Positions 24 to 6,984 of a stretch of DNA of 6,984 nt are shown piece by piece. The position numbers and the translations under genes are program-made. Every line of letters starts with the position of its first letter. Within the stretch, counting starts at the first letter, position 1. The notes under the pieces were generated by a model. That model had not been told where the DNA came from, did not search any database, and saw nothing but the letters and a program-made list of their open reading frames with translations. Origin of the DNA: JBHIER01 sp046760705 [NCBI: bacterium]. GTDB lineage: Bacteria > JBHIER01 > G020348925. The stretch is from NCBI GenBank assembly GCA_046760705.1, contig JBHIER010000179.1, forward strand, positions 1 to 6,984. Reading direction: 5' to 3'.

Positions 24-92
24 GTAGCCGCGGATTCCATTCCGCGCTCTCTGCTGCCCATCCCCCCTGCGAACTTTGGAAAGTTCGGCTAC
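24..92. repeat. BIME-like pair of inverted GTAG-headed REP hairpins
   Basis: Two 23-nt units face each other. The left unit, read on the plus strand (24-46), is GTAGC followed by the 18-nt hairpin CGCGGATTCCATTCCGCG (6-bp stem 29-34/41-46). The right unit, read on the minus strand (92 down to 70), is GTAGC followed by CGAACTTTCCAAAGTTCG (8-bp arms, 2-nt centre). Both share the GTAGCCG head, the hairpin length and a TTCCA centre at the same place, although their stems differ. The spacer is the C/T-rich stretch 47-69. A GTAG tetranucleotide 5' of a short hairpin is the hallmark of bacterial REP sequences mobilised by RAYT (TnpA_REP) transposases, and an inverted REP pair is a BIME. No transposase is in the window, so dispersal in the genome is inferred. 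The element lies about 130 nt past the phosphatase stop, a typical REP position. Confidence 0.62.
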
Positions 93-220
93 ACCCCCCG
101 CTCACACCCCAGTATTTCTTAGTAAGAGCCAACAGGTTCTTGGCCTGATACGCGGCTGGCTGAGGGCTGGAGTTAGTGTTGACGGGTCTCAACTGCGGAT
201 GGGGATCTCAATTTGCACCG

Positions 221-1678
221 CTACTCAAAGCTCTCCCGCATCACCCGCGCTACGTCGGTGTTATCCACAAAGGGACCGCGCACCGGGTCGCTTCCCTTCA
301 CACAGCCGTGGAAACGCTCGCTACCAGGGCCTTTGGCGTAGAGAGGTATTAACGAATTTGTATGGCTATCGCTGTGCCATTCCATTCCCGGTAGCTTTCC
401 TGTGCCGTTATTCTCGATGGGATTCCACACGGCAAATGGCTTACCGCGGGGATCGTCCACACGAAGCCCGGAACCGGGGCCGGTGAGATAGCCACACTCA
501 TGATCGCCTGTGACGATCACGAGCGTCTCATCCCAACTGCTGTTGCCCTCAACCCATCGAATCACCGCCTCTACCGAGCGGTTGAAGTCGATCTCTTCTT
601 CGATCATACGCGCGGAATGATTGTCATGGCCGGCCCAGTCCACCGCGCCGCCTTCGACCATCAGGAAGAAGCCATCCGGGTCGTCATCCAGCACGTTCAA
701 AGCCGCCCGTGTCATCTCCTCAAGCGTGGGCACGGTCTCTATGGGCGGGGTGGAGTAGGGGGCCTCGACTGCCTCCAGAGCGGGTGTGCCGATAAAGCCT
801 GAGCGATCGTACTGAAGAGTTGAGCGCACCTGCGGGATTCCGAATACGCGCTTCGGCGTGGGACCTGTCATCAGGGCCTGGAACTGCGAGCGAGTCTGCA
901 CGAGCGTCCACGGGTCGGGCACACCGTCCCCGTCCACATCCGGGACGACTTTGTCGCTCACTCCGTCGCCGTCCACATCGAACTCGACCGCACCTGTCAC
1001 CAACCCATCCCACACCCCTTCACCGCCGAGGTACTTATATTCAATTCTGTCGGCAGATCGGCCATCGCTGTCAAACAGGGGATGGCCGCAGCCCATGATC
1101 ACTTCACAAGCGCTATCCAGGATCATCTCCCGCGCGATTTCGACATAATTGTGGCGCGAAACATTGTGAGCGACAAAGCCCGCCGGGGTGGCATGGCTCC
1201 ACTGGACGCTGGTGACCACTCCTGTCGCTTTGCCCAGATCTTCCGCAAACTGGGTAATGTGTCGCAGCGGACGCTTCTTCGGATCGACACCGATGGCCCC
1301 GTTGTAGGTCTTGACCCCGGTGGAGATGGCCGTCGCTGCGGCCGCCGAGTCGGTGGAATATTGCATAACATAATCGAACGAGTTCCAAGCCTGGGTGGGG
1401 TCATAACCTCTTTCCATCACATTGCCCAGGCTGTCCACGTACACCATGTACGTGCTCATCCCGCACACGACCGGGAAGTGCTCATAGGCTTGTGTTCCTG
1501 TTGCCCCGTACTGATAGATGCTGGCGGCGTCCACGTGGAAATACCCACATCCGTCGCTGATGAGGAGAATGATGTTCTTGGCGGTATGCGCCTTATGTGA
1601 TGCCAGCCCAGCAGAAGCGCTTGAAAATAAAAGAATAAAGACAGCGATCGAAACCGATTTGCTCTTAACCCCCTCCAT
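221..1678 (-). CDS. Secreted alkaline phosphatase, PhoA family
   Basis: Predicted 485-residue phosphomonoesterase that would release inorganic phosphate from organic phosphates outside the cytoplasm. Residues 1-27 form a Sec signal peptide (K5/K7, a hydrophobic stretch 9-22, possible cleavage after ASA23). Family motifs are in order: metal ligand D42 in LLISDGCG; nucleophile S111 in DSAAAATAISTGVKTYNGA; H162-A-T164; E342; D347 and H351 in VEGGAVDWAGHDNH; D392-H393 in VTGDHECG; H439 in SDSHTNS. The positions matching E. coli Asp153 and Lys328 are H162 and W348, as in Bacillus and Thermotoga enzymes. Residues 234-255 contain two DVDGDGVxD repeats, probably Ca2+-binding, between the catalytic motifs. 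The length is normal and no lesion is visible. The ATG at 1678 is chosen because it precedes the signal peptide directly; no good Shine-Dalgarno is seen upstream. It starts 4 nt after the stop of the esterase relic, so its promoter may lie inside that relic. The stop is TAG. Confidence 0.95.
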   Translation of the reverse strand: MEGVKSKSVSIAVFILLFSSASAGLASHKAHTAKNIILLISDGCGYFHVDAASIYQYGATGTQAYEHFPVVCGMSTYMVYVDSLGNVMERGYDPTQAWNSFDYVMQYSTDSAAAATAISTGVKTYNGAIGVDPKKRPLRHITQFAEDLGKATGVVTSVQWSHATPAGFVAHNVSRHNYVEIAREMILDSACEVIMGCGHPLFDSDGRSADRIEYKYLGGEGVWDGLVTGAVEFDVDGDGVSDKVVPDVDGDGVPDPWTLVQTRSQFQALMTGPTPKRVFGIPQVRSTLQYDRSGFIGTPALEAVEAPYSTPPIETVPTLEEMTRAALNVLDDDPDGFFLMVEGGAVDWAGHDNHSARMIEEEIDFNRSVEAVIRWVEGNSSWDETLVIVTGDHECGYLTGPGSGLRVDDPRGKPFAVWNPIENNGTGKLPGMEWHSDSHTNSLIPLYAKGPGSERFHGCVKGSDPVRGPFVDNTDVARVMRESFE

Positions 1679-1682
1679 TCTG

Positions 1683-2240
1683 TCAACACATTTTTAAAGA
1701 GTTCCCGTCCACTTCTCCCTTGTAATACTCTCTCTGAGTTGTGTCCGCGGGGAAGAAGAGTTCCAGTGCATTATCAATGCGTGCCTCGCTGGAGCTCTCG
1801 TACCCCGGCGGCGTATAGACCCGGCTGGTCCGGCAATTGTTCAGGTAGGTGCCGTAAAAGGTCGTGTCGCGGAGGGTGCCGTGGGGGATGTCAGGGTAAT
1901 ATTCGATCTCCGGCGCGGGGATATACTGGGGCATGCGCAGCTCAGAATTTGGTCCGAAGCCACCGGAACAGGTGTACGGGTTCAATGGGTCAAGGATTCA
2001 GTTGCTCCTGTTCAGGACGAACTTGTAGTCGAGACGTGCATCGGCCTCAAAGGTCTGGGTTATATACCAGAAATCGGTGCCGGAGACTCGTCTCATAGGG
2101 TACGCATTCGGATCCCAAGCATTGGCATCTCCAGGTGCGTTCACTCTGTTTGCCTCGCCGCGATAAATGAAACGGGCGAACATGTCCTGCTCAATATAAG
2201 GGAAACTTTCGACCGCATCCATGAAACTCTCTACGATGGC
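1683..2240 (-). pseudogene. Enterochelin-esterase-like gene relic, core deleted
   Basis: One reading frame, interrupted once, resembles secreted enterochelin-esterase-like proteins: an N-terminal carbohydrate-binding-like (E-set) domain followed by an alpha/beta hydrolase. The part 2240-1998 reads into SFMDAVESFPYIEQD, then VNAPGDANAWDP, FEADARLDYKFVLNRSN, and stops at TGA (1998-2000). The same frame continues as ILDPLNPYTCSGGFGPNSEL to TPPGYESSSE, so TGA sits where I recall the family having Trp (NWILDPLNP). Near 1779-1787 the frame passes directly from ESSSE to ARIDNALELFFPAD. The latter resembles the recalled C-terminal end of these esterases (HIDNALE-FFP), so roughly 200 residues with the whole catalytic core (GxSxG nucleophile, Asp, His) are missing without a frame change. 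The 5' end is also lost: signal-peptide sequence is absent and the frame merges near 2240 with the end of the DNA alkylation repeat gene. No enzyme activity is possible. The family assignment is from memory of motif patterns. Confidence 0.78.
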
Positions 2241-5215: not shown

Positions 5216-6382
5216 CTATCCAACCTCGACAGATTGCTTCACCGCTCTTCTATTCATCACCCAGTTTCCGAGAGCCCCCCAATCGACGCTGACGGCCCTC
5301 TGGGGGCAGAGTTCCTGGCAGCAGAAACAGCGGATGCAGGCATCGAGATCAAAGGCTGGACGGCCATCGCCCATTGAGACGGCCCCTGCTGGACATACCT
5401 CCTGACAGTGACCGCAGCCCACACACCGGGCGGGGTTCACCTTCGGGTCCTCTCTGAAGGTGACGAGGCGCCCGAGAGTGAAGAAGAGGTGGCTCCCCAG
5501 GATTGAGGCGAAGCGTCTCGGGGCAAGAGGGACAGGTTCAAGCTCCTCCAACACGGTGCCGACGACGTCGATGGCCCCAAGATCGGCCGTTCCCAGGCCG
5601 CGTTCGGCGGCGATCCGGATGGTTGGAATCTCCTTCGGATCGAATCCGCCGATGTGAGCCGCCACGGCATCCACGGCCACCGAGTCCTCTCCGGCGATGA
5701 TGAGCCCCGGGCTCAATCGATCCGACTGTCGCCACCAGCCGCTCAGTCCGACCACCCCGTCCATGAGGGCCAAATTCGGACGGATGACGGTGTGGAGGTC
5801 GACCAGCAGGTGAGCAAAACGCTCCGGCGTCGAGCCAATCCGGTGGGCGATCGTCTTCTGCCCGCCTGGCAGACAGCCCAGTTGGTTCTTCACCGCTCCG
5901 GTAAACTTGGTCAGAGTATGGGTCTTCAGCTTCGGCACGGTGATGATGACATCCGCTTCGAGGACAGGCCTGGCAATGTGGCACTCCTTCAGGATGCGGC
6001 CGCCAGGGATTTCCACTCGGTGTGCAGGGACGGAGTCGAAGCTCACCACCTGGGCCCCGGCGGCCTCGCAGGCCGCCCGGGTGCCCGTTTCCTGGATCAC
6101 CCTCTCGCTGGCCCCGTGGAAGCGCATCCCCGATGAGTCGCCCACAACGGCCGCGGCCCCCTGCTCCCTGACCATCCTCACCAGTGCTGCCGTCACCCGC
6201 CGATCGGTGGTCATGCCCGACTCGCCGCCGCGTACATCCAACAGATTGGGCTTTATGAGAACCTTCCGGCCAGCCTGGGCAGCATGCCCTGGGCCACCAA
6301 TGAGGTTGACAGCTTCCCTGACGGCCCTTTCGACGTCTGAATAGTCCGTTCTGGTCCGGACAACGGCCACCGGTGTTTTCAT
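5216..6382 (-). CDS. DUF362 protein with C-terminal double [4Fe-4S] ferredoxin domain
   Basis: 388 residues, the usual length for DUF362-ferredoxin fusions (COG2006). The DUF362 part (about 1-300) shows VLIKPNLLD (41-49), DSSGMRFHGASE (82-93), the paired LEADVIITVPKLKTHTLTKF and TGAVKNQLG (141-169), LALMDGVVGL (204-213) and VAVDAVAAHIGG (235-246). The ferredoxin part has C320-x2-C323-x2-C326-x3-C330-P and C349-x2-C352-x2-C355-x3-C359-P, the ligands for two [4Fe-4S] clusters. It has no signal peptide, so it should be a soluble cytoplasmic electron carrier or redox enzyme; the DUF362 reaction is not established. ATG 6382 lies 2 nt after the nitroreductase stop, with AGGGT in the end of that gene as a likely Shine-Dalgarno, so the two are translationally coupled. 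It is much more GC-rich than genes to its left. No lesion is seen. Confidence 0.93.
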   Translation of the reverse strand: MKTPVAVVRTRTDYSDVERAVREAVNLIGGPGHAAQAGRKVLIKPNLLDVRGGESGMTTDRRVTAALVRMVREQGAAAVVGDSSGMRFHGASERVIQETGTRAACEAAGAQVVSFDSVPAHRVEIPGGRILKECHIARPVLEADVIITVPKLKTHTLTKFTGAVKNQLGCLPGGQKTIAHRIGSTPERFAHLLVDLHTVIRPNLALMDGVVGLSGWWRQSDRLSPGLIIAGEDSVAVDAVAAHIGGFDPKEIPTIRIAAERGLGTADLGAIDVVGTVLEELEPVPLAPRRFASILGSHLFFTLGRLVTFREDPKVNPARCVGCGHCQEVCPAGAVSMGDGRPAFDLDACIRCFCCQELCPQRAVSVDWGALGNWVMNRRAVKQSVEVG

Positions 6383-6384
6383 CT

Positions 6385-6984
6385 CTACCAGACCCTGCCG
6401 ACCGATAGGATGTAGAGTGGATCCTCATCCTCAGGCAACCCGAGCACTCTTTTTATGCCATCGTCTTCGAAACCGCCGATAGGGCACACGCCCAGGTTCA
6501 GACACTCAGCCTGGAGACAAATATTCTGCCCGGCGTGGCCCACCTCGATGTGGACGTAGCGCCGGCCTCTTTCGCCGTATTTTTCTGTGGTTCGTTCGTA
6601 GACGGCCGCAATGACAATGTCCACCGCCGCCTCTCCGATTTGACTTTGAGAAAGAGCCTCTTCGGACAGGGCCGGCCTGAAATCGCCCTCACGGACCTTT
6701 ATCAACTCATGTCTTAGAGAAGAGTATTTGTAGATGCCTGTTTTCAACCCCTCAACGTTGCCAACCACCGCATAGGTCTGGAGAGGGTAGAGGGCTCCGG
6801 CCGAGGGAGCCGTCCGAAAGCCTTCGTCCGAAGTGATCCCCTGGGCAGCCCACAGCAGTTGGGAGAGCTCCTCAAGGGTTATCGGTTCGTCGGTATAGCT
6901 TCGCACCGAGCGCCGCAGTTGAAGTGCCTCCTCCAGGGTCATCTCGCCCACTCGCGCCGGTTCTGGCAGGGAGATGCGCCTTTT
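6385..6984 (-). CDS. SagB/ThcOx-type nitroreductase (5' end outside window)
   Basis: FMN-dependent nitroreductase-fold oxidoreductase (PF00881, SagB-like). The 199 visible codons include the core, numbered from the first visible codon: GEMTLEEALQLRRSVRSYTD (13-32), LEELSQLLWAAQGIT (37-51), APSAGALYPLQTYAVVG (59-75), RRYVHIEVGHAGQNICLQAE (141-160), LGVCPIGGFEDD (164-175) and LGLPEDEDPLYILSVGR (181-197). APSAGALYPLQ is typical of the SagB/ThcOx group. GTG 6951 could be a start, but the frame stays open to the window edge and reads KRRISLPEPARVGEM, which resembles the LPEPR-x-GEMSLEEAL lead-in of intact homologues. The true start is therefore outside the window, perhaps with a signal or anchor. 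Small members of this group not linked to a peptide-cyclisation cluster are often of unknown substrate. It is coupled (2-nt gap) to the DUF362-ferredoxin gene, which could pass electrons to or from its flavin. Confidence 0.93.
   Translation of the reverse strand, partial: KRRISLPEPARVGEMTLEEALQLRRSVRSYTDEPITLEELSQLLWAAQGITSDEGFRTAPSAGALYPLQTYAVVGNVEGLKTGIYKYSSLRHELIKVREGDFRPALSEEALSQSQIGEAAVDIVIAAVYERTTEKYGERGRRYVHIEVGHAGQNICLQAECLNLGVCPIGGFEDDGIKRVLGLPEDEDPLYILSVGRVW

What the first reader, a model, noticed from the sequence alone, without database searches (positions are those of the whole stretch)
24..92. Inverted pair of GTAG-headed hairpins: a BIME-like mobile repeat
Two 23-nt units share GTAGCCG, an 18-nt hairpin and a TTCCA centre but have different stems (CGCGGA/TCCGCG versus CGAACTTT/AAAGTTCG), and they face each other across 23 nt. 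Shared head and centre with divergent, still self-complementary stems implies compensatory change. A GTAG head is the known mark of REP sequences moved by RAYT transposases, so this could mark an undescribed REP family in this lineage.
Basis: partly seen in the sequence, partly recalled or inferred. Interest (0 to 1): 0.62.

Follow-up and report, generated by a model that had tools for sequence, protein, structure and literature searches.

The report
REP hairpin pair of RAYT type
Two short DNA hairpins face each other behind a phosphatase gene; they belong to a known kind of tiny repeat that bacterial RAYT enzymes are thought to scatter, here a variant seen in Chloroflexota and Latescibacterota, interesting but ordinary in kind.

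Summary
It is a head-to-head heterodimer of GTAG-type REP sequences. The pair pattern occurs at 36 places in 14 genomes of a public collection: 30 Chloroflexota, 5 Latescibacterota, 1 unassigned; one Thermoflexia genome has 107 units. Stems covary. A RAYT matching E. coli TnpAREP has close relatives at 8 loci in 5 of 24 genomes; all 8 lie within 300 nt of such hairpins, against 6 of 23 other Y1 loci, 1 of these with this family's hairpin. In Latescibacterota the dispersed unit is mainly the heterodimer, always with the same two stem types, but no close RAYT was found in the four carriers. The window's own genome is not held, so copies and RAYT there are untested. The kind is known (Di Nocera 2013; Bertels and Rainey 2011); whether this exact family is catalogued could not be checked.

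The parts
24..46 (+). REP unit 1: GTAGC foot plus 18-nt hairpin, stem CGCGGA/TCCGCG, centre TTCCAT (a T.T mismatch sits above the sixth pair)
   Evidence: the identical 23-mer occurs in L021, L151, L157 and L158
47..69 (.). 23-nt spacer between the two units
   Evidence: spacers of 8 Latescibacterota dimers are 12-16 nt; spans of the 36 collection pairs are 54-72 nt, the window's is 69 nt
70..92 (-). REP unit 2, inverted: GTAGC foot plus 18-nt hairpin, stem CGAACTTT/AAAGTTCG, centre CC
   Evidence: this stem is seen in no other of the 32 distinct units collected; by eye nearest to the Latescibacterota stems CGAAGTTT and CGAGCTTT
93..220 (.). 128-nt intergenic stretch between the pair and the stop codon of the alkaline phosphatase gene
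   Evidence: in 1-1000 the only terminator-like site is at 156-170 (+), at chance level (1 found, 0.7 expected)
221..1678 (-). neighbouring gene, alkaline phosphatase (PF00245); the pair lies beyond its 3' end

Best explanation
Window 24-92 is a head-to-head heterodimer of two GTAG-tagged REP hairpins, a REPIN/BIME-like non-autonomous element, parked behind an alkaline phosphatase gene. Shown: the anatomy, recurrence of the same design in two phyla, stem covariation, dispersal of (mainly) the dimer in Latescibacterota, and close linkage of the same kind of hairpin to one group of RAYT genes in Chloroflexota. Inferred from published biochemistry on TnpAREP: a RAYT binds the single-stranded hairpin through the GTAG foot and the loop or mismatch, cuts next to it and joins the strand elsewhere, so that the stem may vary as long as it pairs while foot and TTCC centre stay fixed. 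Also inferred: that the copy in the window moved in this way, and that it now acts at most as a stable hairpin at the 3' end of the phosphatase transcript.
For: Exact pair, absent from 400 shuffles. Pair pattern at 36 places in 14 genomes, against about 0.03 expected for 24 fixed bases (my arithmetic, uniform composition). Unit counts against the reversed pattern: G006 107 v 0, G008 35 v 1, G012 23 v 0; 13 of 396 sampled genomes of the class of G012 have at least 8 units and at least four times the control, 5 of them picked by the pattern beforehand. Covariation on 22 distinct 18-nt-type units: 91.7% of cells paired v 76.3% shuffled, 19 cells changed on both sides v 4.8, score 0.429 v 0.146, slid versions at most 0.095. 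RAYT: L061 65-643 hits NF047646 with 141.6 bits (cut-off 80) and PDB 4er8 at E 1.2e-25; its matches at E <= 1e-15 lie at 8 loci in 5 of 24 genomes, and 8 of 8 have hairpins within 300 nt, other Y1 loci 6 of 23. Eight Latescibacterota dimers share the dimer at different places.
Against: No genome of the window's organism is held, so neither further copies nor a RAYT are shown there. Latescibacterota carriers G001-G004 have no match to the RAYT at E <= 1e-15, though these MAGs are only 0.8-1.8 Mb; nor have 9 further unit-rich or sampled genomes and G014 among the 24. Flanks of the Latescibacterota dimers are not wholly unrelated: several comparisons run on for about 10-40 nt beyond the dimer (such as L121/L126, L124/L126, L126/L129, L125/L127). 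The one filled/empty comparison is not a clean excision: 132 nt in G003:C141 against 1 nt in G002:C233, more than the 62-nt dimer. Copies at orthologous sites show vertical inheritance too. In one search two of the five measures are not above shuffles (pairs changed on both sides 79 of 500, further pair types 172 of 500), and its controls do not remove relatedness. Of 23 other Y1 loci 6 also have a loose GTAG hairpin nearby, one of them (L050) of this family.
Confidence: 0.9

Rival explanations
1. A local pair of transcription terminators or mRNA 3'-end hairpins of the phosphatase gene, not a mobile repeat.
For: It lies 128 nt behind the stop codon of the phosphatase gene, and REPs are hypothesised to play a part in termination and mRNA stability (PMC3733652 abstract).
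Against: No T-run follows either hairpin, and the terminator scan did not pick them. The same head, centre and pairing occur at 36 places in 14 genomes. A GTAG foot is not needed for a terminator (recalled).
Confidence: 0.05
2. End hairpins of a decayed IS200/IS605 insertion sequence.
For: RAYTs and IS200 transposases are related, and IS200 elements carry small subterminal hairpins (PMC6006769 passages). One IS200-like Y1 gene, L050, has a hairpin of this family 270 nt away on one side.
Against: The 23-nt spacer holds no gene; units stand inverted with a GTAG foot and are linked to the RAYT group (8 of 8) rather than to other Y1 genes (1 of 23 for this family).
Confidence: 0.03
3. Chance pair of small palindromes.
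For: A loose head pattern alone is at chance level in the window.
Against: 0 of 400 shuffles; recurrence and covariation elsewhere.
Confidence: 0.01

Closest known systems
GTAG-tagged REP families with RAYT genes (REPtrons), Di Nocera et al. 2013, PMC3733652
   Same: GTAG foot, stems mostly of 6-9 pairs, mostly very short loops, subfamilies with alternative complementary stems, head-to-head dimers mostly 20-100 bp apart, heterodimers, RAYT genes flanked by the repeats, Chloroflexi among the phyla (abstract, sections 5, 14, 16 and passages read).
   Different: The one Chloroflexi species I recognise in the passages seen, T. [quoted passage not shown] the units here are dispersed. Consensus sequences are in a figure that is not held, so identity with one of the 24 families is not excluded. 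The word Latescibacter does not occur in the paper's text.
REPINs of Pseudomonas fluorescens SBW25, Bertels and Rainey 2011, PMC3116915 (passages read; authors recalled)
   Same: An inverted REP doublet plus spacer is the dispersed unit; linked to a RAYT; compensatory changes.
   Different: There the two ends are the same 16-mer inverted and the doublet is predicted to form one hairpin; here the two stems differ and the 69 nt fold as two separate hairpins.
E. coli BIME and TnpAREP (PMC8266576, passages read; PDB 4ER8)
   Same: GTAG foot; pairs of unlike REPs (y with z1 or z2); the RAYT found here matches 4er8 at E 1.2e-25.
   Different: E. coli REPs are 29-37 nt with a bulge; these units are 22-23 nt, in size like the 23-nt REP of Stenotrophomonas maltophilia in the same paper.

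Membership tests
GTAG-type REP sequences | unpaired GTAG at the foot of a 20-40 nt palindrome | tested here: met
GTAG-type REP sequences | stem changes that keep pairing within the family | tested here: met
   on 22 of 32 distinct units; 8 of the 17-nt type and 2 unpaired chance matches left out; three of five measures above all 500 shuffles, two not
GTAG-type REP sequences | many dispersed copies in the same genome | not testable with these tools
   no genome held; met in some other genomes with the same design
GTAG-type REP sequences | extragenic position, mostly downstream of genes | tested here: met
   128 nt behind the phosphatase stop codon; whatever lies to the left is outside the window
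RAYT/REPtron system | RAYT gene flanked by the same hairpins | tested here: inconclusive
   not testable in the window's genome; met at 8 of 8 loci in 5 Chloroflexota genomes; 0 matches in Latescibacterota G001-G004
RAYT/REPtron system | enzyme cuts and joins the REP strand | not testable with these tools
   needs biochemistry; cutting is published for E. coli, S. maltophilia and Marinomonas enzymes (PMC8266576 passages)
REPIN | inverted doublet is the dispersed unit | tested here: met
   8 Latescibacterota dimers, none of it in the window's genome; some share about 10-40 nt beyond the dimer
REPIN | whole doublet folds as one long hairpin from like ends | tested here: not met
   two separate hairpins from unlike stems

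The most novel reading that the evidence does not exclude
An uncatalogued REP family, defined by GTAGC plus a TTCC centre, has spread between Chloroflexota and Latescibacterota, and in the latter moves as an obligate heterodimer with fixed unlike left and right ends without a resident cognate RAYT, that is, supplied in trans or lost.
Probability: 0.25. Interest if true: 0.5.

Novelty: new member of a known kind. Interest (0 to 1): 0.33.

Why it matters
It extends RAYT-linked REP elements in little-studied phyla and gives a natural series in which foot and centre stay fixed while the stem varies, which fits the published view of what RAYTs recognise. Fixed unlike ends in Latescibacterota offer a test of why heterodimers are favoured, which Di Nocera et al. 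say has no obvious explanation.

Tried and rejected
Rfam: no family at the gathering score. Pair pattern in viral contigs: 0 matches. Placing the window's lineage failed: its DUF362 protein is 35-39% identical to the best matches in Latescibacterota (5 of 64 genomes at E 1e-40) and in the phylum of G005 (18 of 80 at E 1e-60); none at E 1e-80 in 396 genomes of the class of G012 (a strict cut-off that proves little); its phosphatase, sought in 22 genomes, matched in 2, best a piece at 54% in G533, which also carries 14 units, too far to assign. Clean empty sites were looked for at two Latescibacterota sites and not found. My first flank scan demanded unbroken stems and missed L053; redone. One search picked the wrong strand for L053, L059 and L074; searches give the frames of the first two, and L074 (again as L184) rests on the tool's own frame. 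The unit scan requires pairing, so it was not used for covariation; one search collected by head and centre only. The 8 RAYT loci are grouped by match to one protein; no tree was built. Two papers that one search listed for RAYT plus Latescibacter hold only an author name beginning with those letters (passages).

Full report
What is there. The window holds two inverted 23-nt units, 24-46 (+) and 70-92 (-), each GTAGC followed by an 18-nt hairpin, separated by 23 nt, GTAG ends outward. The stems differ at four neighbouring positions but both pair. In 400 dinucleotide shuffles of the window no such pair arose. The pair lies 128 nt beyond the stop codon of an alkaline phosphatase gene; what lies to its left is outside the window. 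Neither hairpin is followed by a T-run, and the terminator scan of 1-1000 did not pick them. Rfam has no match at its gathering scores.

Recurrence. No genome is held for the window. I therefore scanned the public genome collection for both heads and centres at a variable distance (24 fixed bases). It found 36 places in 14 genomes: 30 in Chloroflexota records (14 in one Thermoflexia MAG), 5 in four Latescibacterota MAGs and 1 in an unassigned MAG (sequences). By single unit, counts against the reversed pattern are 107 v 0 in G006, 35 v 1 in G008, 23 v 0 in G012 and 4 to 5 v 0 in each Latescibacterota genome G001-G004, one of G002's five being an unpaired match; G005 (2 v 6) is not above its control. 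In the 64 genomes of the phylum of G001, 31 have a match, but only G001-G004 have 4 or 5; the other 27 have 1 to 3, as expected from the control. In 396 sampled genomes of the class of G012, 167 have a match, most at control level; 13 have at least 8 units and four times the control, of which 5 had been picked by the pattern itself. The distribution is thus patchy. Viral contigs gave none.

Stems covary. Collected by head and centre alone, 156 units gave 32 distinct sequences (loci overlap, so some units are counted twice in the 156). Of the 32, 22 are of the 18-nt hairpin type, 8 of a 17-nt type, 2 do not pair. On the 22, 91.7% of cells pair (76.3% in shuffles, 0 of 500 as high), 19 cells are changed on both sides (4.8 in shuffles, 0 of 500), and the covariation score is 0.429 (0.146; 0 of 500; at most 0.095 when partners are slid). 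Two measures are not above shuffles: pairs changed on both sides, 4 of 6 (79 of 500), and further pair types, 8 (172 of 500). Relatedness of the units is not removed. The window's first unit is identical to units in L021, L151, L157 and L158; the second has a stem seen nowhere else in the set.

RAYT link. Of 14 carrier genomes, 10 have a Y1_Tnp match and 9 one over the cut-off; 30 loci in all. One group is a true RAYT: L061 65-643 scores 141.6 bits to NCBIfam REP_Tyr_transpos (cut-off 80) and matches E. coli TnpAREP 4er8 at E 1.2e-25. A search of 24 genomes with it at E <= 1e-15 gave 9 rows at 8 loci in 5 genomes; of the 8, 4 are interrupted by a stop or incomplete (G013:C90, G012:C189, G006:C33, G008:C208). 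All 8 have GTAG hairpins with a TTCC-like centre within 300 nt: seven of the GTAG-plus-CGCG design, one of these (L180) with centre TTTCTTA, and one (L187) of a GTAGGGCGGG variant. Of the 23 other Y1 loci, 6 have any such hairpin and one, L050, is of this family; the reversed control gave 6 units in 88,918 nt. No match was found in G001-G004, nor in 15 others of the 24 genomes, among them unit-rich G014, G159, G228, G401 and G413; MAGs are incomplete, so this is weak evidence of absence.

Unit of dispersal. A 1.3-kb Latescibacterota query matched other sites in G001-G004 only over the dimer or part of it, the longer matches ending within 7 bases of its ends. Eight dimers at different places align over both hairpins, with a CGAAGTTT stem on one side and a CGAGCTTT stem on the other, 12 to 16 nt between; three carry point changes, in L121 in one head and stem, in L124 in one stem, in L126 in one centre. 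Their flanks mostly differ, but several pairs of sites share about 10-40 nt beyond the dimer, so the element may be longer at some sites or the targets alike. Some sites are orthologous and keep the dimer, so it is also inherited. One site is filled in G003:C141 and lacks 132 nt in G002:C233, where 1 nt stands instead: presence and absence, but not a clean excision. A second site differs by unlike stretches and is uninformative.

Reading. The published enzymes bind the folded REP strand through GTAG and loop or mismatch and cut at CT or CA next to it (PMC8266576, passages). The pattern here, fixed foot and centre with free but paired stem, fits that, although foot and centre were part of my search pattern, so their constancy is in part by selection; the RAYT-flanking hairpins, found with a looser search, show some variation in both. 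REP heterodimers and REPtrons are known (PMC3733652), as is the doublet as replicative unit (PMC3116915, passages). So the finding is a new, possibly uncatalogued, member of a known kind. Paper searches pairing RAYT or REP terms with Chloroflexi, Chloroflexota or Latescibacter listed no paper on this family that I could see; two surveys, PMC3733652 and PMC6006769 (passages and section 13), name Chloroflexi; figures with family consensus sequences are not held. Not shown: mobility, copies or RAYT in the window's own genome, whose lineage I could not place.

Noticed in passing
window 1683-2230 (-): The open frame 1683-1985 continues upstream on the same strand in the frame, interrupted by one in-frame stop; it looks to me like a broken esterase-type gene (recalled resemblance; a Pfam scan of 1683-1985 gave nothing).
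   Followed up: partly
window 5216-6984 (-): A DUF362/ferredoxin gene and a nitroreductase-family gene lie 2 nt apart, probably one operon.
   Followed up: no
L128 (G004:C31), about 278-414: About 140 nt stand beside the REP dimer in G004 and are missing in the 95-97% identical G003:C79; possibly a small mobile element of another kind.
   Followed up: partly
G006 loci L133-L152: Many units in this Thermoflexia genome are preceded by CCCGTTTT and some dimers carry the same motif in the spacer, so a longer repeat than the dimer may be dispersed there.
   Followed up: no
L184 (G013:C29) 2028-2505: Eight head-to-tail hairpin units at a 68-69 nt period stand directly behind a RAYT gene.
   Followed up: no
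G004:C142 (L129), about 481-576: A second dispersed repeat, unlike the dimer, overlaps this flank and matches about ten places in G001, G002 and G004.
   Followed up: no
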